38,071 nucleotides of DNA, taken from assembly GCA_017551765.1 (NCBI GenBank), contig JAFZKV010000047.1, positions 1-38,071 of the forward strand. The letters run 5' to 3'. The translations under genes were made by a program, and so were the position numbers. Position 1 is the stretch's first letter. The number at the start of each line of letters is the position of its first letter. The notes beneath the pieces were generated by a model. The model was not told the origin of the DNA and ran no database searches. It saw only the letters and a list, made by a program, of their open reading frames with translations. Origin of the DNA: Bacteroidales bacterium (lineage in GTDB: Bacteria > Bacteroidota > Bacteroidia > Bacteroidales > P3). This document shows, piece after piece, positions 22,007 to 38,071 of this stretch.

Positions 22007-23641
22007 TTAATTCATCTTGGGGCCGGCAGCGACAAGTGCTTTACCAGCCTCGTTGTGCGTGAACTTGACGAAGTTCTTCACAAAGCGGTCGGCCAGGTCG
22101 CGGGCCTTCTCGTCCCACACCTTGGCGTCGGTATAGGTGTCGCGCGGGTCAAGGATCTTCGGGTCGACGCCTGGCAGCGAGGTGGGCACCTCAAAGTCGA
22201 AGAACGGTATCTTCTTGGTCTCTGCCTTGAGGATAGAGCCGTCGAGGATGGCGTCGATGATGCCGCGCGTGTCCTTGATGCTGATGCGCTTGCCGGTGCC
22301 GTTCCAGCCGGTATTGACCAGGTAGGCCTTGGCGCCGCTCTTCTCCATGCGCTTCACCAACTCCTCGGCATACTTGGTGGGATGCAACTCAAGGAAAGCC
22401 TGACCGAAGCAGGCGCTGAAGGTAGGCGTAGGCTCGGTGATGCCGCGCTCGGTGCCGGCCAACTTGGCGGTAAAGCCGCTGAGGAAGTAGTACTTGCACT
22501 GCTCGGCGGTGAGGATGCTCACGGGAGGCAGCACGCCGAAAGCGTCGGCCGAAAGGAAGATGACATTCTCGGCAGCAGGACCTGCACTCTTACCATGCAC
22601 CGGTTCCACAATCTTCTCGATATGGTCGATAGGATAGCTCACACGGGTATTCTCCGTGACGCTCTTGTCGGCGAAGTCAATCTTGCCGTTGGCGTCGACG
22701 GTGACGTTCTCCAGCAGGGCGTTGCGGCGGATGGCGTTGTAGATGTCGGGCTCGCTCTCCTTGTCAAGGTTGATTACCTTGGCATAGCAGCCGCCCTCGA
22801 AGTTGAAGACACCCTCGTCGTCCCAGCCGTGCTCATCGTCACCAATCAGCAGGCGCTTGGGGTCGGTGCTGAGGGTGGTCTTGCCGGTGCCGCTCAGGCC
22901 GAAGAAGATGGCCGTGTGCTTACCCTGCATGTCGGTGTTGGCCGAGCAGTGCATAGCGGCGATACCCTGCAGCGGCAGGTAGTAGTTCATCATCGAGAAC
23001 ATACCCTTCTTCATCTCACCACCGTACCAGGTGTTGAGGATGACCTGCTCGCGGCTGCTGACGTTGAAGGCCACACAGGTGTCGCTGTTCAGGCCCAGCT
23101 CCTTGTAGTTGTCCACCTTGGCCTTGCTGGCGGCGTAGACGGTGAAGTTGGGGGTGAAGCTCTTCAGCTCTTCCTCGCTGGGCTTGATGAACATATTGCG
23201 CACGAAGTGAGCCTGCCAGGCCACCTCCATGATGAAGCGCACCGACATGCGGGTGTCCTTGTTGGCACCGCAGAAAGCGTCGACCACAAAGAGTTCCTTG
23301 CCACAGAGCTGCCGCTTGGCCAGGTCGCGCATCTTGCACCACACCTCCTCGCTCATGGGGTGGTTGTCGTTCTTGTAGTCGTCCGAGGTCCACCACACGG
23401 TGTTCTTCGAGTTCTCGTCCATGACGATATATTTGTCCTTGGGCGAGCGGCCGGTATAGATGCCGGTCATCACGTTGATGGCGTCCAACTCGGTGAGCTG
23501 ACCCTTGTCGTAGCCGGTGAGGCTGGGGTCCATCTCCATCTTGAACAGCTCCTCATACGAGGGGTTGTAGTGAATATCCTTCACGCCGGTAATGCCCAGC
23601 GCTTCGAGCTCTTTACGTATTGTCTGATTGTTTGATTGCAT
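22007..23641 (-). CDS. pckA: Phosphoenolpyruvate carboxykinase (ATP)
   Basis: The 544-residue enzyme interconverts oxaloacetate + ATP and PEP + CO2 + ADP; in anaerobic Bacteroidales it commonly runs toward oxaloacetate. The substrate-binding segment [15 protein letters not shown], the kinase-type P loop [11 protein letters not shown] and the metal-binding [19 protein letters not shown] are all intact. The N-terminus from residue about 16 ([17 protein letters not shown]) aligns with the family. The first nine residues (MQSNNQTIR) are encoded by short-period repeats, so this start codon itself lies inside the repeat tract 23625-23735. It follows ppdK by 88 bp on the same strand, making a PEP/pyruvate/oxaloacetate module. 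Confidence 0.96.
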
Positions 23642-23735
23642 GATTGTTTGAGTATTTATTGTCTAACAATTGCCTGATTGTTTGAGCAGTTGATGCGTCA
23701 GCCACTCAAACAATCAAGCATTTACACATTCAAGC
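23625..23735. repeat. Short-period (7/8-bp) repeat palindrome spanning ppdK stop to pckA start
   Basis: TGATTGTTTGAG occurs at 23641-23652 and 23675-23686, with TGATTGTTTGA also at 23625-23635. The inverted CTCAAACAATCA at 23705-23716 pairs perfectly with 23675-23686 over 12 bp. The loop, 23687-23704, holds the start of a 19-bp core, GATGCGTCAGCCACTCAAA at 23692-23710, that recurs at 37885-37903. The left part is closer to 8-bp units (TGATTGTT). The ends fall inside the pckA start and the ppdK stop. Confidence 0.82.
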
Positions 23736-26766: not shown

Positions 26767-26796
26767 TTTGTAATTAACAGAAAAAGCGTATCTTTG
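26767..26796 (+). promoter_or_regulatory. cas9 promoter
   Basis: TTTG at 26767-26770, 18 bp, and TATCTTTG at 26789-26796 drive cas9-cas1-cas2. Only 6 bp separate its upstream element from that of the tracrRNA promoter. A possible TTG start codon lies inside the -7 element, which rules it out as the Cas9 start. Confidence 0.85.
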
Positions 26797-26817
26797 CACA
26801 TTCAAAAGTTATCTAAC

Positions 26818-29800
26818 ATGAAACAAATTCTTGGATTAGATTTAGGAACTACGAGCATTGGCTGGGCTGTAGTAAACGAGGCCGAAAACAGCAATGAATC
26901 ATCTTCTATTATTCGGTTGGGCGTCAGGGTCAATCCGCTTTCCTCCGACGAACAAACAAGTTTTGAAAAAGGCAATCCGATTACCACTAACGCCGAAAGA
27001 ACACTTAAAAGAAGTATGCGACGCAATCTGCAACGATACAAATTACGTCGTGACAACCTTATCTCCCTTTTAAAAGAGCAAGGTTGGATTACTGACCAAA
27101 CCATATTGTCGGAACAGGGTAACAATAGTACATTTGAAACATACCGTTTGCGAGCAAAAGCCGCCACACAGGCTATCACATTGGAACAATTTGCCAGAGT
27201 GTTGCTGATGCTAAACAAAAAGAGAGGGTACAAAAGTAGCCGTAAGATGAAGAAAAACGACGATGGCTATTTCGTAAACAACCTTGATATTGCCAGGCAA
27301 ATGTACGACTCAAACCTTACGCCCGGACAGTATGGATATAATCTTATTAAAGAAGGAAAACACTATATACCAGACTTCTATCGTTCTGATTTAATTGCAG
27401 AACTTGACCGAATTTGGACACACCAACATGAATACCACAGCAACATTCTAACCCCGGAGTTTCGTGCAACTATTATCAACCTGGGAAAGAATGGCACTTC
27501 AAGCGCCTTTCGCAAGAACTACAATATATTTACCACAGACATTAAGGGCAACCGATTTGAAAAAAACAAAGAATATTACAAATTGCGCAGCGATGCGCTC
27601 AAAAGAGAACTGACAGCAGAAGAACTTGCCACCGTCATCAGCGAAGTAAACGGACAAATAAACAGCAGTAGCGGCTACCTTGGAGCCATCAGCGACCGGA
27701 GCAAGATGCTTTATATTAACCACATGACCGTGGGCCAATGGCTTATGCGGCAGTTGGACAACAACCCCAACGCCAGCTTAAAGAACCAACCTTTTTACCG
27801 CCAAGACTATTTGGATGAATTTGAGAAGTTATGGGAAACACAAGCACAATATCACAACGAACTAACGCCAGAACTAAAACACGAAATCAGGGACATCATA
27901 ATCTTTTACCAGCGCAAACTGAAATCCCAGAAATGGCTGGTTTCAAACTGCCCTTTTGAGAACCGTAAAGTATGCCCGAAATCGTCGCCTCTGTTCCAAC
28001 ATTTCAGAATATGGCAGATGCTCAACAATGTTACCGTCACCTTTGACGGGGAATCGTACCCATTAAATGAAGAGCAAAAAGCCATTTTGAGCAGAGAACT
28101 CATGTACAAGGAGAAACTCAGCAAGAGCGATGCCCTGAAACTACTATTTGTGAAGACCAAAGGGATTGACTTGAATTTTACAACCCTCGAAGGAAATCGA
28201 ACAATGGCCAACATGCTCAAAGCGGCGCAAGAAGTTGTTTCGATGAGTGGCCACGGCGAATACGATTTTTCCAAACTACCAACCGACACAATCATAGACA
28301 TTGTTTGCTCTGTCTTCAAAGGATTAGGCTATTCGACCGAATGGCTAACACTCAACACAGGTGCCAACAATCTCGAAGACGAGCCTCAAATACGGCTGTG
28401 GCATCTTATCTATTCGTTTGAAGATGACAACTCAGCAACAGGCGACGAAAAACTGGTGGAGCATCTTATGACCATGCTTAACATACCTAAAGAATATGCC
28501 CGCCTGTTCGCAAACATACATCTGGAAGATGATTACTGTGGCTTATCCAGCAAGGCCATCAAACGCATCCTGCCCTTCATGATGGCAGGACACATATATA
28601 GCGAAGCATGTGCACTTGCAGGATACCGTCACTCCGAGCAGTCGCTGACACGTAAGGAAAATGACAACAGGCCACTAAAAGAACACCTGTCACTACTCCC
28701 CAAGAACAGCCTTCGCAATCCGGTGGTGGAGAAGATACTCAACCAGATGGCCAACGTGGTTAATGGCATTATTGACACCTATGGGAGGCCTGACGAAGTG
28801 CGCATTGAGCTGGCACGTGAGCTGAAGAAGAACGCCACAGAACGCAAGGCAATGGACGAATCTATTAAACGTAATACACGAGAAACCGAACAATGCCGCG
28901 AAGTGTTACAAAAAGAATTTGGCCTAACCCATGTAAGCCGAAACGACATTATACGCTATCGACTTTACAAAGAGTTGGCCAACAATGGGTATAAAACACT
29001 TTATTCCAATCAATACATTCCTCAAGAGAAGCTGTTTAGCAAGGATATAGATATTGAGCACATCATCCCGCAAGCCCGCCTTTTCGATGACTCTTTTTCA
29101 AACAAAACTCTTGAGTATCGAAGCATAAACATTGAGAAAGGCAGTGCAACTGCCATTGACTATGTAAGAAGCAAATATGGCGAATCAGAGGTCGAAAAAT
29201 ACAAGGAGCGCGTCAACGAACTATTGAAGAATGGCGCAATATCACCAGCAAAAGCAAAGAAACTAAAAATGTCGGAATCGGAAATCCCCGACGACTTTAT
29301 CGAACGCGATTTACGAAACACACAGTACATATCCCGCAAAGCACAGGAAATGTTGCGCGACATTACCCGAACTGTTACCGCAACAACAGGCAGCATCACC
29401 GACCGCCTACGTCAAGATTGGCAGTTGGTCGACATCATGCAGGAACTAAATTGGGAGAAATACCAAAAGCAAGGATTGACGACCATTATCACAGGACGCG
29501 ACGGTCAGCAGATTAGGCGCATCATTGATTGGACTAAACGCAATGACCACCGTCACCATGCTATGGATGCGCTAACTATAGCCTTCACAAAACCCGCCTA
29601 TATCAACTACTTAAACCACTTGAATTCACGCAGCAACGACGACATCCGTTCAATTGAACGAAAGTACCTGATGCGCGACGCGAACGGTCACCTGCTTTTT
29701 ATTGCACCCATTGCAGGCAACTTCAGAGCAGAAGCCAAGCGTCACCTTGAAATGATTCTCGTCTCAATCAAAGCTAAAAACAAGGTCGTTACGCGCAATA

Positions 29801-30876
29801 AAAATATTACGAAGACCAAAGGCGGCACCAAAGAGACCATCCAACTCACCCCACGAGGCCAGCTACATAAAGAAAATGTATATGGCTCAATGCTACAACC
29901 TCACACCAAACCATTCTCTGTAGGCAGCAAAATGACAGCCGAAATCGTGGCACAAGTACAAGATGCCACATTACGTGAAGCTCTAAAGAAACGGCTTGAA
30001 ACATTTGGCAACGACCCGAAGAAAGCCTTTGCCGGCAAAAATAGCATCGCAAAGAGCCCCATATGGATTGATGAAAGCCACACACAACATGTACCTGACC
30101 AAGTAACAATTCGTTGGTTCGAAAAGCAGTTTACCATCCGCAAAGCAGTCGACAAAGACCTCAATCTCGAAAAAGTGGTCGACGAAGGTATACGCCGTAT
30201 TCTTCAAACACGACTCGACGAGTATGGCGGTGACAGAAACAAGGCATTTGACAACCTCGACAACAACCCCATTTGGTTAAACCGAGAGAAAGGCATAACC
30301 ATAAAACGTGTAACCATCGCCGAGAACATACCGGGCGAACCTCTCCACAACAAGCACGACAAAGACGGCAAACCCATTCTCGATGCCAAAGGCAACCCCA
30401 TGCCAGCCGATTATGTCAACCTCAGAAACAATCACCACGTGTCTATCTTCCAAGATGCAGACGGCAACCTGCAGGAACATATTGTGTCGCTGTACGAAGC
30501 AGTGGCTCGTGTATCCGAACTCGGATTGCCCATAATCGACAGAGATTATAACAAAGATAAAGGTTGGCAATTCCTGTTCACTATGAAACAAAACGAATAC
30601 TTTGTATTTCCAAACACTGAACAAGGCTTCGACCCCAACGAGATAGACCTAACCGACGAGCGCAACTATGCCCGTATCAGCCAAAACCTGTATCGCGTAC
30701 AAAAATTATCAAGCGGCGACTATTGGTTCCGTCATCATCTGGAAACAACCATTGATACTCCGAAAGAATTACAGGGTATCACATGGAAACGAATAACATC
30801 ACTAAATAACCTGAAAGGTATAGTCAAGGTCCGAATAAACCACATCGGACAGATTGTCCACGTAGGAGAATATTAG
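26818..30876 (+). CDS. cas9: CRISPR-associated endonuclease Cas9 (type II-C)
   Basis: The 1352-residue protein is a complete RNA-guided nuclease. RuvC-I is ILGLDLGTTSIGWAVV with D8. The arginine-rich bridge helix follows (ERTLKRSMRRNLQRYKLRRD). RuvC-II is VRIELAREL with E664; the HNH motif is DIEHIIPQARLFDDSFSNK with H748; RuvC-III is HRHHAMDALTIAF with H914 and D917. All nuclease residues I can identify are present, though the residue before the HNH histidine is glutamate where many homologues have aspartate. The remaining C-terminal region would carry the PAM-interacting part. The ATG at 26818 is used because an earlier TTG lies in the promoter. Codon use is AT-richer than the flanking genes, suggesting transfer. 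Confidence 0.97.
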   Translation: MKQILGLDLGTTSIGWAVVNEAENSNESSSIIRLGVRVNPLSSDEQTSFEKGNPITTNAERTLKRSMRRNLQRYKLRRDNLISLLKEQGWITDQTILSEQGNNSTFETYRLRAKAATQAITLEQFARVLLMLNKKRGYKSSRKMKKNDDGYFVNNLDIARQMYDSNLTPGQYGYNLIKEGKHYIPDFYRSDLIAELDRIWTHQHEYHSNILTPEFRATIINLGKNGTSSAFRKNYNIFTTDIKGNRFEKNKEYYKLRSDALKRELTAEELATVISEVNGQINSSSGYLGAISDRSKMLYINHMTVGQWLMRQLDNNPNASLKNQPFYRQDYLDEFEKLWETQAQYHNELTPELKHEIRDIIIFYQRKLKSQKWLVSNCPFENRKVCPKSSPLFQHFRIWQMLNNVTVTFDGESYPLNEEQKAILSRELMYKEKLSKSDALKLLFVKTKGIDLNFTTLEGNRTMANMLKAAQEVVSMSGHGEYDFSKLPTDTIIDIVCSVFKGLGYSTEWLTLNTGANNLEDEPQIRLWHLIYSFEDDNSATGDEKLVEHLMTMLNIPKEYARLFANIHLEDDYCGLSSKAIKRILPFMMAGHIYSEACALAGYRHSEQSLTRKENDNRPLKEHLSLLPKNSLRNPVVEKILNQMANVVNGIIDTYGRPDEVRIELARELKKNATERKAMDESIKRNTRETEQCREVLQKEFGLTHVSRNDIIRYRLYKELANNGYKTLYSNQYIPQEKLFSKDIDIEHIIPQARLFDDSFSNKTLEYRSINIEKGSATAIDYVRSKYGESEVEKYKERVNELLKNGAISPAKAKKLKMSESEIPDDFIERDLRNTQYISRKAQEMLRDITRTVTATTGSITDRLRQDWQLVDIMQELNWEKYQKQGLTTIITGRDGQQIRRIIDWTKRNDHRHHAMDALTIAFTKPAYINYLNHLNSRSNDDIRSIERKYLMRDANGHLLFIAPIAGNFRAEAKRHLEMILVSIKAKNKVVTRNKNITKTKGGTKETIQLTPRGQLHKENVYGSMLQPHTKPFSVGSKMTAEIVAQVQDATLREALKKRLETFGNDPKKAFAGKNSIAKSPIWIDESHTQHVPDQVTIRWFEKQFTIRKAVDKDLNLEKVVDEGIRRILQTRLDEYGGDRNKAFDNLDNNPIWLNREKGITIKRVTIAENIPGEPLHNKHDKDGKPILDAKGNPMPADYVNLRNNHHVSIFQDADGNLQEHIVSLYEAVARVSELGLPIIDRDYNKDKGWQFLFTMKQNEYFVFPNTEQGFDPNEIDLTDERNYARISQNLYRVQKLSSGDYWFRHHLETTIDTPKELQGITWKRITSLNNLKGIVKVRINHIGQIVHVGEY

Positions 30877-30882
30877 TATACT

Positions 30883-31788
30883 ATGATTAAGCGCACCCTT
30901 TGTTTTTCACACCCAGCCTACTTGTCGCTGCGAAACAAACAACTTGTTGTAAAGTTGGAGCCACACGACAACGAACCCGAAAAGCAAGCCACCATACCCA
31001 TTGAGGATATTGGCATTGTGGTGCTTGACCATCGCCAAATTACCCTCACTCACGGTGTAATGGCCGCACTGCTGGACAATAACGCCTCGGTAGTCACCTG
31101 CAACGAAGCACACATGCCCGTAGGATTGATGCTGCCACTTGAAGGTCACACCGTACAGCAAGAGCGTTTTCAAGACCAACTCAACTCTTCCGTACCATTA
31201 CGAAAACAACTGTGGCAACAGACGGTGCAGCAAAAGATACGCAACCAGGCAGCTCTTCTCGCTGAACTACACGGCGTAGAAGTGGGCAATATGAAACGTT
31301 GGGCCGGAGAAGTACTTTCTGGTGACAGCACCAATCTTGAGGGGCGCGCCGCCGCTTTCTATTGGAGTAAAATGTTTCCAACCATTCCCGACTTTACACG
31401 CAGTCGCGACGGGGACTATCCTAACGCGCTGCTCAACTACGGATACGCAATACTACGTGCCGTCATCGCCCGCGCCCTTGTTAGCAGTGGCCTCCTCCCC
31501 ACCCTCGGCATACACCACCACAACAGATACAATGCCTACTGCCTCGCCGACGACATCATGGAGCCCTACCGTCCCTATGTCGACCGACTCGTGGTACAAA
31601 CAATGTCAGAGTGTTGCGATATAGATATCACCACCGCCATTAAAAGCCGACTGCTAACCGTGCCGACTCTTGAAGTGTACATTGGCGGTCAGCGCAGCCC
31701 GCTGATGGTGGCCGCAAGCCAAACAACGGCTTCGCTGGCACGCTGCTTTGCAGGCGAAAGCCGCCGGGTAGCCTATCCAGAAATGTAG
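30883..31788 (+). CDS. cas1: CRISPR-associated Cas1 (type II)
   Basis: The 301-residue integrase subunit joins new spacers to the array with Cas2. The metal-binding residues are visible: E153 in NLEGRAAAFYWSK, the histidines of LGIHHHNRYNAYCLADDIME (211-213), and D224/E227 in the same stretch. The N-terminal beta domain (MIKRTLCFSHPAYLSLRNKQ) is typical of type II Cas1. It starts 6 bp after the cas9 stop and precedes cas2 by 2 bp, so all three genes share the cas9 promoter. No cas4 or csn2 follows, which assigns the locus to subtype II-C. Confidence 0.97.
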   Translation: MIKRTLCFSHPAYLSLRNKQLVVKLEPHDNEPEKQATIPIEDIGIVVLDHRQITLTHGVMAALLDNNASVVTCNEAHMPVGLMLPLEGHTVQQERFQDQLNSSVPLRKQLWQQTVQQKIRNQAALLAELHGVEVGNMKRWAGEVLSGDSTNLEGRAAAFYWSKMFPTIPDFTRSRDGDYPNALLNYGYAILRAVIARALVSSGLLPTLGIHHHNRYNAYCLADDIMEPYRPYVDRLVVQTMSECCDIDITTAIKSRLLTVPTLEVYIGGQRSPLMVAASQTTASLARCFAGESRRVAYPEM

Positions 31789-31790
31789 AC

Positions 31791-32123
31791 ATGGACCGCT
31801 TCAGCGAATACCGCATTATGTGGCTCCTCGTTTTCTTTGACCTTCCCACCGATACCAAGAAGGAGCGCAAAGCAGCCGCCGACTTCCGGAAAAACCTTCT
31901 TACTGACGGCTTCACCATGTTTCAATTTTCCATCTATGTACGCCACTGTGCCAGCCGCGAGAACGCCGATGTTCACCTAAAACGCGTCAAGGCCAAACTT
32001 CCAGAATTCGGCCAGGTGGGATGCCTAACCATTACAGATAAGCAGTTTTCTGAAATAGAACTTTTTATCTGCAAGAAAGAGGTAGAGCCCACTGCTCCAG
32101 GCCAACAATTAGAGTTGTTTTGA
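31791..32123 (+). CDS. cas2: CRISPR-associated Cas2
   Basis: The 110-residue protein is the small scaffold subunit of the Cas1-Cas2 integrase. The ferredoxin-like strand RIMWLLVFFDLPTDTKKERK contains the usual aspartate after the first beta strand, followed by FRKNLLTDGFTMFQFSIYVR, the standard second segment. It starts two bases after the cas1 stop. The C-terminal tail (PTAPGQQLELF) is short and normal for type II. A terminator lies 27 bp downstream. Confidence 0.96.
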   Translation: MDRFSEYRIMWLLVFFDLPTDTKKERKAAADFRKNLLTDGFTMFQFSIYVRHCASRENADVHLKRVKAKLPEFGQVGCLTITDKQFSEIELFICKKEVEPTAPGQQLELF

Positions 32124-32186: not shown

Positions 32187-32238
32187 AGCCTTTGACACCT
32201 AATAAAACATTGCATATCATTACGTTATTAACATCGTA
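32187..32238 (+). promoter_or_regulatory. CRISPR leader
   Basis: About 50 AT-rich bases lie between the terminator and the first repeat, on the side of cas2. Because the degenerate repeat is at the other end, this is probably the side where new spacers are inserted. The assignment is by position only. Confidence 0.5.
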
Positions 32239-32580
32239 ATGTCAAAGAACAATTATCAATGTTTTCTTTTCAAGCAATTCACAACGTGCATGATTGTGTT
32301 ATATTGCTGAGACAGAATGTCAAAGAACAATTATCAATGTTTTCTTTTCAAGCAATTCACAACTCACCCAGTCCTGGAAACCGTCGTTCTCTAATGTCAA
32401 AGAACAATTATCAATGTTTTCTTTTCAAGCAATTCACAACTACGGGTTGCAGCTTTCGCAGGTAAAAGAAATGTCAAAGAACAATTATCAATGTTTTCTT
32501 TTCAAGCAATTCACAACGTAAGAGTCTTTGAACCAAGTTGAGGAATTAATATCAAAGAACATTTATCAATATGTGATTTA
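32239..32580 (-). CRISPR. Type II-C CRISPR array: four 47-nt repeats, four spacers, degenerate terminal repeat
   Basis: Identical 47-nt repeats lie at 32239-32285, 32317-32363, 32394-32440 and 32471-32517; on the plus strand they begin ATGTCAAAGAACAATTATCA and end AAGCAATTCACAAC. Spacers of 30-31 nt lie at 32286-32316, 32364-32393, 32441-32470 and 32518-32548. The base before every repeat is A, so a 48-nt repeat is also possible. A degenerate fifth repeat starts at 32549 and keeps only one half. The tracrRNA anti-repeat pairs with the minus-strand repeat, so crRNAs are made from the minus strand, as in other type II-C loci with repeat-borne promoters. Confidence 0.98.
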
Positions 32581-32583
32581 TAA

Positions 32584-33000
32584 TTATATCTCTAATAACT
32601 GCAGACCAAAGAGCTCCCGATAATCAGGAAATTTGAGATCAGAGCTGATAAGAGTCTTATGGGTTTGGATGGCACTCGCAATAATAAGCCGATCGAAAGG
32701 GTCAGAATGGGGTCGTCCGTCAATCACCACGAAATCCATGCTCTGAAAGAAATCCAGAATATCAGGTGTAGCTTCGCAGATTTTGATATATGCTTGCTCA
32801 AGAACACGCACAATCTCCGAAGGTGTGGCACGTAGTTTAATACGATTGATTTGCTGTAACTGAACAATTTCGACAAGAGAAATCGCCGCTATGGAATATT
32901 TCCTGTAGCTACATTCGATATCATTACGAATAACTTCCGGCAAACGATTGTCGTCGGTAAGATACCAAATCAACGCCTCGGTATCAAGCAGGTACTGCAC
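32584..33000 (-). CDS. PIN-domain ribonuclease toxin (VapC-like)
   Basis: The 138-residue protein is a PIN domain of the VapC type, expected to cleave RNA with a metal cluster. D6 in YLLDTEALIWYL and the acidic residues in the SLVEIVQL helix and SDPFDRLIIASAI (D and D near the C-terminal third) fit the PIN active site. The final SSDLKFPDYRELFGLQLLE is typical of this subgroup. The start codon is GTG and overlaps the TAG stop of a 35-codon gene upstream, suggesting a toxin-antitoxin pair. The stop codon lies 3 bp from the degenerate CRISPR repeat, so it is transcribed toward the array. Confidence 0.88.
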   Translation of the reverse strand: MQYLLDTEALIWYLTDDNRLPEVIRNDIECSYRKYSIAAISLVEIVQLQQINRIKLRATPSEIVRVLEQAYIKICEATPDILDFFQSMDFVVIDGRPHSDPFDRLIIASAIQTHKTLISSDLKFPDYRELFGLQLLEI

Positions 33001-33107: not shown

Positions 33108-33128
33108 TGTCACCAATATTTTTCGCTG

Positions 33129-33159
33129 CAAAAATACAAAGTTTTTTTCATCTGGCAAA
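33129..33159 (-). promoter_or_regulatory. Promoter of the PIN toxin-antitoxin pair
   Basis: On the minus strand TTTG (33156-33159), 19 bp, TATTTTTG (33129-33136) match the consensus exactly. Over 33 bp the promoter agrees with the tracrRNA promoter at 27 positions. Confidence 0.85.
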
Positions 33160-33286
33160 ATTTATTTCTCGCGCTACGCAAAAAAAGTATATTTAGGTAA
33201 AAAAATTTACAAGATTTACAGGATTTCCGCCGACGGCGGGGAGGTAAAAAAAGGGTGTCAAAAAATAGGTCGTGCACGATATAAAT

Positions 33287-33321
33287 AGTTGTCAGCTGTT
33301 AGTTGTCAGTTGTCAGTTTGA
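33287..33321. repeat. Heptamer tract, unit AGTTGTC, 5 copies
   Basis: Five head-to-tail 7-bp units, three perfect AGTTGTC and two diverged, with no palindrome. Confidence 0.8.
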
Positions 33322-33439
33322 CCTCCAATGACCCCCTAAAACGGCGCTTTGTCGGAGAAAAACAGGCAAAAGCGGCGATTGACGCTACTAATAATCACGT
33401 TATAAGCCAATTAAATGCCATTTTGCCACCCGTATCACT

Positions 33440-33548
33440 ACGGACCCCCTCCGACTGTGGTCCGACTCAAGTCCGTATCAAGTCCGAGTGATGTCCGACT
33501 GCAGTCGGACAAAAGACGGTGTAGGTACGGTGTCGGTGCGGATAGGTC
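33440..33548. repeat. 11-bp tandem repeat palindrome E
   Basis: About ten 11-bp units run through this block. Five in a row at 33450-33504 begin with TCCG (TCCGACTCAAG and variants). The turn is a perfect 18-bp palindrome, GTCCGACTGCAGTCGGAC, at 33493-33510. Beyond it the units continue with the period kept as ACGGTGTAGGT and ACGGTGTCGGT. Confidence 0.85.
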
Positions 33549-33564
33549 GTGCACGACATATTTA

Positions 33565-33649
33565 GGTAGCCGGTGGTCGGTAGTCGGTGGTCGGTGAGGG
33601 CATCATTGACTGCTGACTACCGACTACCAACTACCGATTACCAGCTACT
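33565..33649. repeat. Heptamer-armed palindrome (5 + 5 units)
   Basis: Five left units (GGTAGTC, GGTGGTC and close variants) and five right units (GACTACC and variants) are reverse complements and flank a 15-bp centre at 33600-33614. The right arm reaches the xerD stop codon at 33648-33650. Confidence 0.88.
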
Positions 33650-36579: not shown

Positions 36580-37326
36580 ATGATCTTAGAAAATAAGACC
36601 GCAATCGTGACCGGTGCCACCCGTGGCATCGGTCACGCCATTGCTATACGGTTCGCCAAGGAGGGCTGCAACGTGGCTTTCTGCGGCCGCGCACGCAACG
36701 ACAAGATGGTCGCCGTAGAGGCAGAGCTGCAAGCCTTGGGCGTGAAAGCCAAAGGCTACGCCGCCGACGTGGCCGACTACCAACAGGCGCAGGACTTCGT
36801 CAAGGAAGTGCTCGCCGACTTCGGATCGGTGGACATCCTGGTCAACAACGCCGGCATCACCAATGACGCCGCCGTCAAGCGCATGACCGAGGAGCAGTTC
36901 GACCATGTGGTGGGCGTGAACCTCAAGAGCGTCTTCTGCATGACCAAGGCCATCCAGCCCTCGATGTGGAAGCAGGGCCACGGCTCGATAGTCAACATCG
37001 GTTCGGTGGTGGGCATCGCGGGCAACTACAACCAGGCCAACTATGCCGCCTCGAAGGCCGGCATCATAGGCTTCAGCAAGAGCTGCGCCAAGGAGTTCGC
37101 CACCCGCAACATCCGCGTCAACGTGGTATGCCCCGGCTTCATCGAGACCGAGATGACCGCCGACGTGCCCAAGGAACTGATGGACACCTGGTGCAGCCGC
37201 ATCCCCATGAAGCGCCCCGGCACCACCGATGAGGTGGCGCAGGCCTGCGTCTTCCTGGCCAGCGACATGTGCCCCTACATCACCAGCGTGGTGCTGCCCG
37301 TCTGCGGAGGTATGGAAGATGCGTAA
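36580..37326 (+). CDS. fabG: 3-oxoacyl-ACP reductase / short-chain dehydrogenase
   Basis: The 248-residue protein is a classical short-chain dehydrogenase. The cofactor loop is TGATRGIGHAIA, NNAGI follows, and the catalytic triad is S142, Y155, K159 (NIGSVVG, NYAASKAGI). The C-terminus CPYITSVVLPVCGGM resembles FabG, which reduces 3-oxoacyl-ACP with NADPH in fatty-acid synthesis. The symbol is the most likely member but other SDRs cannot be excluded. The ATG at 36580 is 1 bp behind the gapA stop; a longer frame inside gapA is rejected. Its stop overlaps the start of the next gene by 8 bp, so the three genes form an operon. Confidence 0.93.
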   Translation: MILENKTAIVTGATRGIGHAIAIRFAKEGCNVAFCGRARNDKMVAVEAELQALGVKAKGYAADVADYQQAQDFVKEVLADFGSVDILVNNAGITNDAAVKRMTEEQFDHVVGVNLKSVFCMTKAIQPSMWKQGHGSIVNIGSVVGIAGNYNQANYAASKAGIIGFSKSCAKEFATRNIRVNVVCPGFIETEMTADVPKELMDTWCSRIPMKRPGTTDEVAQACVFLASDMCPYITSVVLPVCGGMEDA

Positions 37327-38071
37327 GATTGGGTTTACGGTTTACGGTTTACGGTTTACAGTTGGTCTACTCTGGGCTGTCTTGCTGTTGGTTGCCTGCG
37401 GTCAATCAAACAATCAAGCAATCAAGCAATCAACCACCGACACCGTCACCGACGACTACGGACGCACCGTGGCGGTCCCCTCCCACCCTGCGCGGGTAGT
37501 CAGCCTCTCGCCTGCCGTTACCGAGATTATCTATGCCCTCGGCGCCGAGGAGCTCCTTGTGGGCCGGACCGATTTCTGCGTCTACCCGCCCGAGGCGGAG
37601 GCCATTCCCAGCATCGGCGGCATCAGCAACCTCAATATCGAAAAAATACTGTCGCTCAACCCCGACTTGGTCATCAGCGGCTCGATGGTGGGCAAGAAGG
37701 TGACCGACCAGATGGACGCGATGGGCATCCCGATGGTGTGCGTGATTGAGAAACCGCGCTTTGAAGCCCTCTACGACAATATCACGGCTATCGGCCACCT
37801 TGTGGGCAAGGAGCACGAAGCCGACAGTTTAAATAAAGTTTTAAGCTGTGAGCTTTTAGCTTTAAGTGAGGCTGACGCCATTGCGACGCGCCAGCCACTT
37901 AAAACTCACAGCTCACAGCTCACAGCTCCAACTTGCTACTACGTCGTCGGCTTCGGTGCCGGTGGCAACTTCACCGCGGGCGGCAACACCTTCATCAACG
38001 ACATCATCCGCATGGCCGGTGGCCGCAACATTGCCGAAGGCGTGGAAGGCTGGAGCTACAGCCTCGAAGCC
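37319..38071 (+). CDS. BtuF-like ABC-transporter substrate-binding lipoprotein, partial (3' end outside window)
   Basis: The 251 codons in the window encode a vitamin B12/iron-siderophore-type periplasmic binding protein. A lipoprotein signal ends at LLLVACGQS. The periplasmic-binding fold begins TVTDDYGRTVAVPSHPARVV and SLSPAVTEIIYALGAEELLV, then GISNLNIEKILSLNPDLVI. It would deliver its ligand to an ABC importer. Three repeat tracts lie inside the frame: heptamers in the signal sequence (37332-37359), octamers after the lipobox cysteine (37403-37434), and a heptamer-armed palindrome (37839-37932) that adds about 35 residues (from about SLNKVLSCELLALS) not matching the family. The frame stays open through all three. 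The ligand is not determined. Confidence 0.85.
   Translation, partial: MRKIGFTVYGLRFTVGLLWAVLLLVACGQSNNQAIKQSTTDTVTDDYGRTVAVPSHPARVVSLSPAVTEIIYALGAEELLVGRTDFCVYPPEAEAIPSIGGISNLNIEKILSLNPDLVISGSMVGKKVTDQMDAMGIPMVCVIEKPRFEALYDNITAIGHLVGKEHEADSLNKVLSCELLALSEADAIATRQPLKTHSSQLTAPTCYYVVGFGAGGNFTAGGNTFINDIIRMAGGRNIAEGVEGWSYSLEA
37332..37359. repeat. Heptamer tract in signal-peptide codons, unit GGTTTAC, 4 copies
   Basis: Four perfect 7-bp units at codons 5-13 encode GFTVYGLRFT, i.e. all three frames of the unit in turn. Confidence 0.9.
37403..37434. repeat. Octamer tract, unit CAATCAAG, 4 copies
   Basis: Four 8-bp units (CAATCAAA, two CAATCAAG, CAATCAAC) follow the lipobox cysteine codon and encode part of the linker QSNNQAIKQS. 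The unit is the reverse complement of the one at the pckA start (TGATTGTT). Confidence 0.85.
37839..37932. repeat. Heptamer-armed palindrome inserted in frame in the BtuF-like gene
   Basis: Left units (37839-37866) are TTTTAAG, CTGTGAG, CTTTTAG and CTTTAAG. Right units (37898-37932) are CTTAAAA, three CTCACAG and CTCCAAC. The arms are largely reverse complements of each other. The centre 37867-37897 holds GGCTG and CAGCC, which can pair, and the 19-bp core at 37885-37903 matches that of 23692-23710. Confidence 0.85.

What the first reader, a model, noticed from the sequence alone, without database searches (positions are those of the whole stretch)
37839..37932. Two distant palindromes share a 19-bp core, one lying in frame inside a coding gene
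The core GAYGCGYCAGCCACTYAAA (Y = C or T) is found at 23692-23710, between ppdK and pckA, and at 37885-37903, within the BtuF-like gene. Only three transitions separate the copies. Both are flanked by short repeats arranged as inverted arms, but the arm sequences differ (TGATTGTTTGAG versus TTTAAG/CTCACAG types). This suggests one element family with a conserved core and free arms. The copy in the BtuF-like gene keeps the frame open and adds about 35 residues, much as Rickettsia palindromic elements do.
Basis: partly seen in the sequence, partly recalled or inferred. Interest (0 to 1): 0.85.

Follow-up and report, generated by a model that had tools for sequence, protein, structure and literature searches.

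The report
Gene-less remnants of selfish palindromic elements
Two look-alike DNA palindromes in a rumen bacterium, one sitting inside a working gene, appear to be gene-less copies of a selfish element whose complete form carries a small helical-bundle protein of unknown function between mirrored runs of 7- or 8-letter repeats.

Summary
In detail: GAYGCGYCAGCCACTYAAA lies at 23692-23710 and 37885-37903, three transitions apart, inside inverted repeats. It is a real dispersed family: the tag GCGYCAGCCACTYAA has 156 exact copies in 24 of 80 same-genus genomes (73 in G011, 5 in own) against 12 for the backward control. Arms are inverted arrays of 7- or 8-bp units that differ between copies. The likely source lies outside the window. 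Genes of the four-helix-bundle family PF05635 (23S_rRNA_IVP) sit between such inverted arrays: 29 of 44 genus loci against 1/200, 0/400 and 0/90 controls. In one IVP clade some upstream ends read [array]-AGTGGCTACGC and some downstream ends GCGYCAGCCACT-[inverted array]; both halves of the btuF copy match such ends. Unit length follows the IVP protein tree, so one core can carry 7- or 8-mer arms. In-frame residence is right (also in a RapZ-domain and a GH94-type gene), but btuF is no clean 35-residue insertion: its linker is swapped wholesale between near-identical genomes. How the elements move is unknown. Ten full-text searches found no description of the class.

The parts
37837..37928 (+). 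7-mer type element inside the btuF-like gene: left arm, core, inverted right arm; frame open
   Evidence: Inverted repeat I11; left half matches an IVP-element upstream end (L380_UP 80% over 46 nt, E 2e-7), right half a downstream end (L382_DN 94% over 31 nt, E 2e-8), no hit when read backwards; RNA fold z -4.86
37885..37903 (+). 19-bp core, right half of the inner hairpin (GCGCCAGCCACTTAAA; read as the inner end of the right terminus)
37869..37878 (+). left half of the inner hairpin (AGGCTGACGC; read as the inner end of the left terminus); the same letters are in L074, which has no arrays
   Evidence: IVP left end AGTGGCTGACGC of L380
37905..37928 (+). CTCACAG heptamer array, right arm
37319..38071 (+). 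host gene, BtuF-like periplasmic binding protein (PF01497), cut by the window end; start codon placed by eye
   Evidence: 8e-26, above cut-off
37332..37363 (+). GGTTTAC heptamer array at the signal-peptide region of the same gene; several orthologues show other repeated words there (by eye)
37403..37433 (+). CAATCAAG octamer array in the signal-peptide region; shares 13-mers with IVP-element ends L395 and L392
23668..23740 (+). 8-mer type element between ppdK and pckA
   Evidence: I23; right half matches L392_DN 85% over 34 nt (E 6e-7), left half has no hit; read backwards it still gets a weaker hit (E 3e-5); orthologous junctions; RNA z -5.15
23692..23710 (+). 19-bp core
23619..23662 (+). further octamer array, over the start of pckA on the minus strand ([15 protein letters not shown]; many relatives read MNDKI.. 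or MTDKI.. there, by eye)
33290..33318 (+). TGTCAGT heptamer array, the word at the IVP gene L303 of the same genome
   Evidence: 10 shared 13-mer hits

Best explanation
Both palindromes are gene-less (MITE-like) derivatives of a selfish element, here called an IVP element. Its full form is: [tandem array of 7- or 8-bp units]-AGTGGCTRCGC...ATG-gene for a ~120-aa four-helix-bundle protein (PF05635)-stop...GCGYCAGCCACTY-[the array, inverted]; the 3' tag may overlap the gene's end. Losing the gene leaves what the window shows: array, GGCTGACGC, short loop, GCGYCAGCC, inverted array. Shown: the anatomy, the dispersal, gene-less copies matching both ends of gene-bearing ones, presence/absence between close genomes, in-frame residence in several genes, and unit length tied to protein clade. 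Inferred: that the IVP protein recognises its own terminal array (in DNA or RNA), one subunit per unit or per few units, so that protein geometry fixes unit length while the letters drift by slippage and conversion between the two arms. Not known: the chemistry of movement; no transposase or reverse transcriptase tested tracks the copies. Elements lie mostly outside open frames, in several viewed cases right at a stop codon, and are tolerated in frame in linkers and coiled coils because the unit arrays can be read open.
For: Tag: 156 exact copies in 24 of 80 genus genomes, backward control 12. IVP genes flanked by an inverted repeat: 29 of 44 genus loci, 23 of 30 L319-like loci (a few loci in both sets), 13 of the 29 best-scoring phylum loci; controls 1/200 long ORFs, 0/400 random spacers, 0/90 short ORFs, 2/40 other ORFs of the phylum loci. 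All 7 closest L319-like genes (55-100% identity) have the tag (full or as GCGYCAGCCACT) at one end: G011, G075, G062, G012 and G085 within 12 bp of a hit, G002 and G080. Five of 6 own gene-less elements match an IVP upstream end with the left half and a downstream end with the right half (E 2e-7 to 1e-13), the sixth (23668) by its right half only; read backwards, 3 of 6 have no hit and the best is 3e-5. Unit length on the tree of 63 IVP proteins (59 assigned): 7-mers 5 changes vs 21.4 shuffled, 8-mers 4 vs 17.1, 0/500 as low; the core-bearing clade of 21 (91/89) holds six 7-mer rows and an 8-mer subclade (13 of 14 rows, 100/99). Presence/absence against G092: C14 ~92 bp vs 14 bp; C15 86 vs 29 bp, in frame, 44 vs 25 residues between the same flanking motifs. 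A gene-bearing element with inverted 11-mer arrays lies in G092 where own has a short array (776 vs 162 bp).
Against: The own assembly (89.7% complete) has no L319-type gene (best 6e-6), so its tagged copies are orphans unless the parent is unassembled; G049 has 23 tags but its best L319 match is only 45% identical. A strict tag scan found it beside only 2 of 30 gene-bearing loci; the wider scan, <=2 mismatches, upstream in 9 of 21 and downstream in 5 of 21 loci of the clade, 0 of 9 others, random stretches 17/600 and 14/600; it is exact at both ends in one locus (L382), within 2 mismatches at both in two. The 8-mer parent that matches best (L392) has a stop codon inside its gene. Word sharing between own 7-mer arrays and IVP flanks is hardly above the backward control (28 vs 22 of 45; 8-mers 8 vs 2 of 10; 11-mers 3 vs 1 of 28). 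Arrays alone are common near any gene (53 of 200 controls). Ten longer IVP paralogues (150-160 aa) have no inverted repeat. Near-copies and inherited loci help the clustering of unit length. No target-site duplication was seen by eye. Nearly all genomes are metagenome assemblies. Swap of the btuF linker could be ordinary recombination between species.
Confidence: 0.78

Rival explanations
1. Rickettsia-palindromic-element-like selfish repeats unrelated to IVP genes; IVP elements merely share host sites and repeat habits.
For: In-frame copies in unrelated genes with like peptides; many copies without a gene; tag copy number does not track the IVP gene in every genome (G049, own); strict tag beside only 2 of 30 IVP loci.
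Against: Both halves of gene-less copies match the two ends of gene-bearing elements, with a clear backward control; tag at one end of all 7 closest IVP genes; unit length tracks IVP protein clade.
Confidence: 0.12
2. REP/BIME-type palindromes mobilised by a RAYT (Y1) transposase.
For: Imperfect hairpin core of REP size, mosaic and tandem arrangement in G011.
Against: PF01797 was found in 4 of 8 genomes: none in own or G049 (23 tags), one in G010 (0 tags), two in G011 (73 tags); the core sits at the ends of IVP genes. The flanks of the Y1 genes found were not read.
Confidence: 0.03
3. Palindromes created and kept in place by quasi-palindrome correction (template switching) and slippage, with no mobile element.
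For: In 14 of the 20 btuF linkers labelled as array-bearing the two halves are more complementary than 60 of 60 shuffles, while arms of orthologues differ; a SerRS coiled coil has a repeat block at constant length, 163 vs 163 bp, where G092 has none.
Against: Cannot produce the same core at many unrelated sites or presence/absence of a ~90-bp block. It may well act on top of mobility.
Confidence: 0.05
4. The btuF linker is a recombination hot spot, perhaps under diversifying selection, and the element there is incidental.
For: L023/L092: flanks 98.2% and 97.0% over 330 bp each side, linker 47% identical and 31 aa in both; L097/L103 similar with flanks 90% and 95%.
Against: Turnover is also seen at C14:16811 (own AAGTTTT words, G092 AAGTGGA words with a related core) and in SerRS.
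Confidence: 0.2

Closest known systems
23S rRNA intervening sequences (IVS) with an S23p/IVP ORF (PMC4990558, passages read)
   Same: An S23p ORF inside an element with terminal inverted repeats; called selfish, sporadic; mobility proposed, function and origin unclear
   Different: Here the elements lie outside rRNA genes, their inverted repeats are tandem arrays of 7-11 bp units, and gene-less copies are dispersed, also in protein genes
Rickettsia palindromic elements (PMC10969869 and PMC6649704, passages read)
   Same: Palindromic, dispersed, in frame in unrelated genes
   Different: RPE are ~150 bp with a conserved peptide; here the core is short, the arms are tandem arrays that differ between copies, and a gene-bearing parent is proposed
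MITEs (PMC10969869, passages read)
   Same: Short, gene-less, inverted ends, derived from a gene-bearing element
   Different: The presumed parent encodes no recognisable transposase; no target-site duplication seen
TAACTGA heptamer repeats of Beggiatoaceae, cyanobacteria and five Bacteroidetes (PMC4679880, passages read)
   Same: Abundant heptamer direct repeats of patchy distribution with no evident mechanism of spread
   Different: One word, in that genome mostly just upstream of start codons; the passages read do not link it to IVP genes
Coding palindromes of nematomorph mitochondria (PMC6649704, passages read)
   Same: Inverted repeats within coding sequence whose arms stay complementary while gained and lost
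   Different: Long and mostly perfect; repeat conversion proposed as the cause
PARCELs (PMC2996958, abstract and section list only)
   Same: Palindromic repeats that encode amphipathic peptides
   Different: 25-residue protein motif in tandem within ORFs

Membership tests
Rickettsia palindromic elements | Dispersed palindromic DNA, in frame in unrelated genes | tested here: met
Rickettsia palindromic elements | Conserved sequence over the ~100-150 bp of the element, conserved peptide | tested here: not met
   Only the short core is conserved; arms differ in word and unit length
MITE-like derivative of a gene-bearing element | Both ends match the ends of an autonomous element | tested here: met
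   5 of 6 elements match on both halves, the sixth on one (control); that the gene-bearing form is autonomous is not shown
MITE-like derivative of a gene-bearing element | Target-site duplication | tested here: inconclusive
   None evident by eye at the junctions aligned
MITE-like derivative of a gene-bearing element | Mobilised in trans by the parent's transposase | not testable with these tools
   Parent gene is PF05635, not a known transposase; needs experiment
23S rRNA IVS | PF05635/S23p ORF between terminal inverted repeats | tested here: met
   29/44, 23/30, 13/29 loci against controls
23S rRNA IVS | Located in a 23S rRNA gene | tested here: not met
   Rfam over 20 L319-like loci (about 3 kb each): no rRNA, 11 tRNAs; other IVP loci were not scanned
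REP/RAYT | Y1 transposase flanked by the repeat | tested here: inconclusive
   PF01797 in 4 of 8 genomes, none in own or G049; flanks of the Y1 genes found were not read
Diversity-generating retroelement | Reverse transcriptase beside an Avd-like protein | tested here: not met
   PF00078 in 2 of 10 genomes (G010, G014), none in own, G011, G049, G092, G007

The most novel reading that the evidence does not exclude
PF05635 four-helix-bundle genes are the core of a widespread class of bacterial selfish elements that move without a transposase of their own: the protein recognises terminal tandem arrays whose unit length (7, 8, 9-11 bp) is set by the protein, and the element and its gene-less offspring overwrite or enter loops, linkers and gene ends in place, in frame. 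This would give the orphan S23p/IVP family a function and explain much of the short-repeat landscape of these Bacteroidota.
Probability: 0.4. Interest if true: 0.93.

Novelty: new variant of a known kind. Interest (0 to 1): 0.82.

Why it matters
S23p/IVP proteins of rRNA intervening sequences have no known function (PMC4990558, passages). Here their relatives sit between inverted tandem arrays in this genus and at many loci across Bacteroidota, the unit length of the array follows the protein clade, and gene-less copies reshape coding sequences, housekeeping proteins included. That makes both the function of the protein and the origin of in-frame palindromic repeats directly testable.

Tried and rejected
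RAYT transposase and reverse transcriptase do not track the copies. Rfam: nothing in the window at gathering thresholds. I first read the left half of the btuF core as ordinary gene sequence because L074 has it; after I prefer it as a relic of an older element copy in L074-L076, but the two readings are not separated. The 7-mer/8-mer label on the btuF trees is not clustered (8-mers 8 changes, shuffled 7.7 and 7.5; 7-mers 11 and 10, shuffled 11.3 and 10.7), though all 20 labelled rows fall in one 41-row clade of 72; those trees are poorly resolved. Most 11-mer arrays (25 of 28) share no 13-mer with IVP flanks and may belong to another element. An earlier flank scan of the IVP loci found no ORF in 9 of 30 loci and was replaced. 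Literature: 10 full-text searches found no paper on mobile IVP elements outside rRNA; most subscription papers are not held, and only listings were seen for all but five papers.

Full report
Observation. The two 19-mers are present as described and lie in strong hairpins. In the window the degenerate 16-mer at up to 3 mismatches is no more frequent than chance, and in the own genome at up to 2 mismatches 19 hits face 17 for the backward control; the exact copies and their surroundings carry the signal. Nine of those 19 hits have, by eye, tandem arrays on both sides in inverted order. The stricter tag GCGYCAGCCACTYAA occurs 156 times in 24 of 80 genus genomes, 73 times in G011 and 23 in G049, against 12 backward-control hits. 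In the stretches read, the G011 tag is mostly followed by 7-mers (ACTTAAAACTT...), the G049 tag by 8-mers (ACTCAAGCATTAACACAATC...).

Repeat landscape. In 263,056 bp of the own genome (window plus 16 stretches, several chosen because they hold core hits) tandem arrays have period 7 (45), 8 (10), 11 (29) and 14 (36, mostly double 7s); every other period from 4 to 15 has 0-3, and block-shuffled sequence has none. A rough codon model puts 8 of 68 array clusters within one open frame, 19 between genes of one strand, 22 with both flanks called non-coding, 14 with one, 1 convergent, 4 at edges. The 8 lie in four genes: SerRS, a MATE transporter, a sodium:solute symporter, and five in one GH94-type gene (glucan-synthase-like by recall). 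The core copy C15:5900 lies in frame in a gene with a RapZ C-terminal domain and an APH match just below its cut-off; C115 has an in-frame octamer array in a hexosaminidase-like protein (GH20 domain below cut-off).

The btuF site. Orthologues came from 18 same-genus genomes and 80 named MAGs, partly the same genomes; the linker was parsed in 84 of 100 loci, 72 distinct. Twelve carry 7-mer and eight 8-mer arrays by threshold, all inside one clade of 41 rows, while 31 rows outside have none. In 14 of these 20 no shuffle of 60 reached the complementarity of the two halves (19 of all 72 linkers, one of them, L030, without arrays); right halves of other species reached it in 0 to 15 of 71 cases. 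L074 and L076 have the length of the window's linker and no arrays; L075 has the right array only. Between L023 and L092, 97.6% identical over 660 bp of flank, only the ~95-bp linker differs (47%), a 7-mer against an 8-mer cassette of equal length. So the segment is a turnover site, not a clean insertion of 35 residues.

The ppdK-pckA site. Of 30 pckA loci (the best 30 of 57 matches), 3 have 8-mer arrays (own among them), 2 have 7-mers, and only own has the tag. By eye 13 others have the end of ppdK upstream and no array at threshold. In the own genome the element lies at the ppdK stop codon and over the pckA start.

Close comparison. G092 (the genome of L077) is colinear with own contigs C14 and C15. 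The C14:6898 element (about 92 bp) faces 14 bp; the C15:5900 element (86 bp) faces 29 bp, giving 44 against 25 residues between GRNIM and YYIDYQGG. Of 15 further array clusters on these contigs 12 could be aligned: about five keep the same word (e.g. L045:17118, L046:17971), two have another word (L045:10792; L046:16765 with AAGTGGA in G092 and a related core), four have an array in own only, SerRS among them at equal length (163/163), and one has a large insertion in G092.

The parent. That insertion is an extra ~600 bp with a four-helix-bundle gene between inverted 11-mer arrays. PF05635 genes are in 10 of 10 genomes searched. Of 44 loci, 29 have an inverted repeat joining the 250 bp upstream and downstream, and 27 have arrays; long-ORF controls gave 1/200 and 53/200, random spacers 0/400 and short ORFs 0/90. 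Arrays alone are therefore common near any gene; the inverted pair is the specific sign. In Bacteroidota at large 61 of 80 genomes have the family, and 13 of the 29 best-scoring loci have the inverted pair, against 2 of 40 other ORFs of the same loci. L319/L380 (G011) has AAGTGGCTGACGCG just before its start codon and three more copies upstream in tandem. The protein of L339 matches the solved structure 2rld (1.8e-31). In 20 L319-like loci Rfam finds no rRNA and 11 tRNAs.

Ends. Five of 6 own gene-less elements match upstream IVP ends with the left half and downstream ends with the right half; 23668 matches with its right half only. Read backwards, three get no hit and the rest at best 3e-5.

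Why one core has two kinds of arms. On a tree of 63 IVP proteins (59 with an assigned period) unit length changes 5 times for 7-mers and 4 for 8-mers where shuffles need 21.4 and 17.1 (0 of 500), and the three 11-mer rows are one clade; near-copies contribute. The genes beside the tag belong to one clade of 21 (91/89), with 7-mer members among L380-L386 (L381 unassigned) and an 8-mer subclade. The 37885 copy matches 7-mer parents, the 23692 copy 8-mer parents. Shared core and different arms thus follow from two sister lineages of the parent element.

Limits. Movement has not been observed; no transposase or reverse transcriptase tested is implicated. The own assembly lacks the closest parent. 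A strict tag scan finds it beside only 2 of 30 IVP loci; L392, the best 8-mer match, has a stop inside its gene. Sharing of words between own 7-mer arrays and IVP ends is barely above control. Binding of array by protein, and the kinship of S23p with Avd, are inference and recall.

Noticed in passing
window 33126-33630: A dispersed repeat of up to ~470 bp with about 40 further hits in G092; holds GTCGTGCACGAC palindromes and GTCCGACTnnn 11-mer arrays; perhaps a separate element.
   Followed up: no
window 26794-32123 and 32237-32597: Cas9 (RuvC_III, HNH_4) followed by two ORFs that look like cas1 and cas2 (named by eye) and a repeat array with 77-78 bp spacing, i.e. a type II CRISPR locus.
   Followed up: no
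L090 and L135, btuF linker: Two orthologues carry other repeat-like sequences in the same linker (CTCCCCTCTCC..GGGGGTGAGG; CCCTAAGTTAGGGG..GGGCGGAGGAG), so it may receive several element families.
   Followed up: no
L387, L388, L390, L391, L394, L395, L396, L397, L399, L401: Ten of the 20 gene-bearing loci scanned have a tRNA gene close by the IVP gene; an eleventh (L393) has one further off.
   Followed up: partly
L185, L190, L194, L196, L201 (G011): Some tags are followed not by an array but by a longer common sequence (ACTTAATGCCGAAGGCTGTGA...), another dispersed repeat.
   Followed up: no
L052 (own C88): One GH94-type gene holds five array clusters of different words in one open frame.
   Followed up: partly
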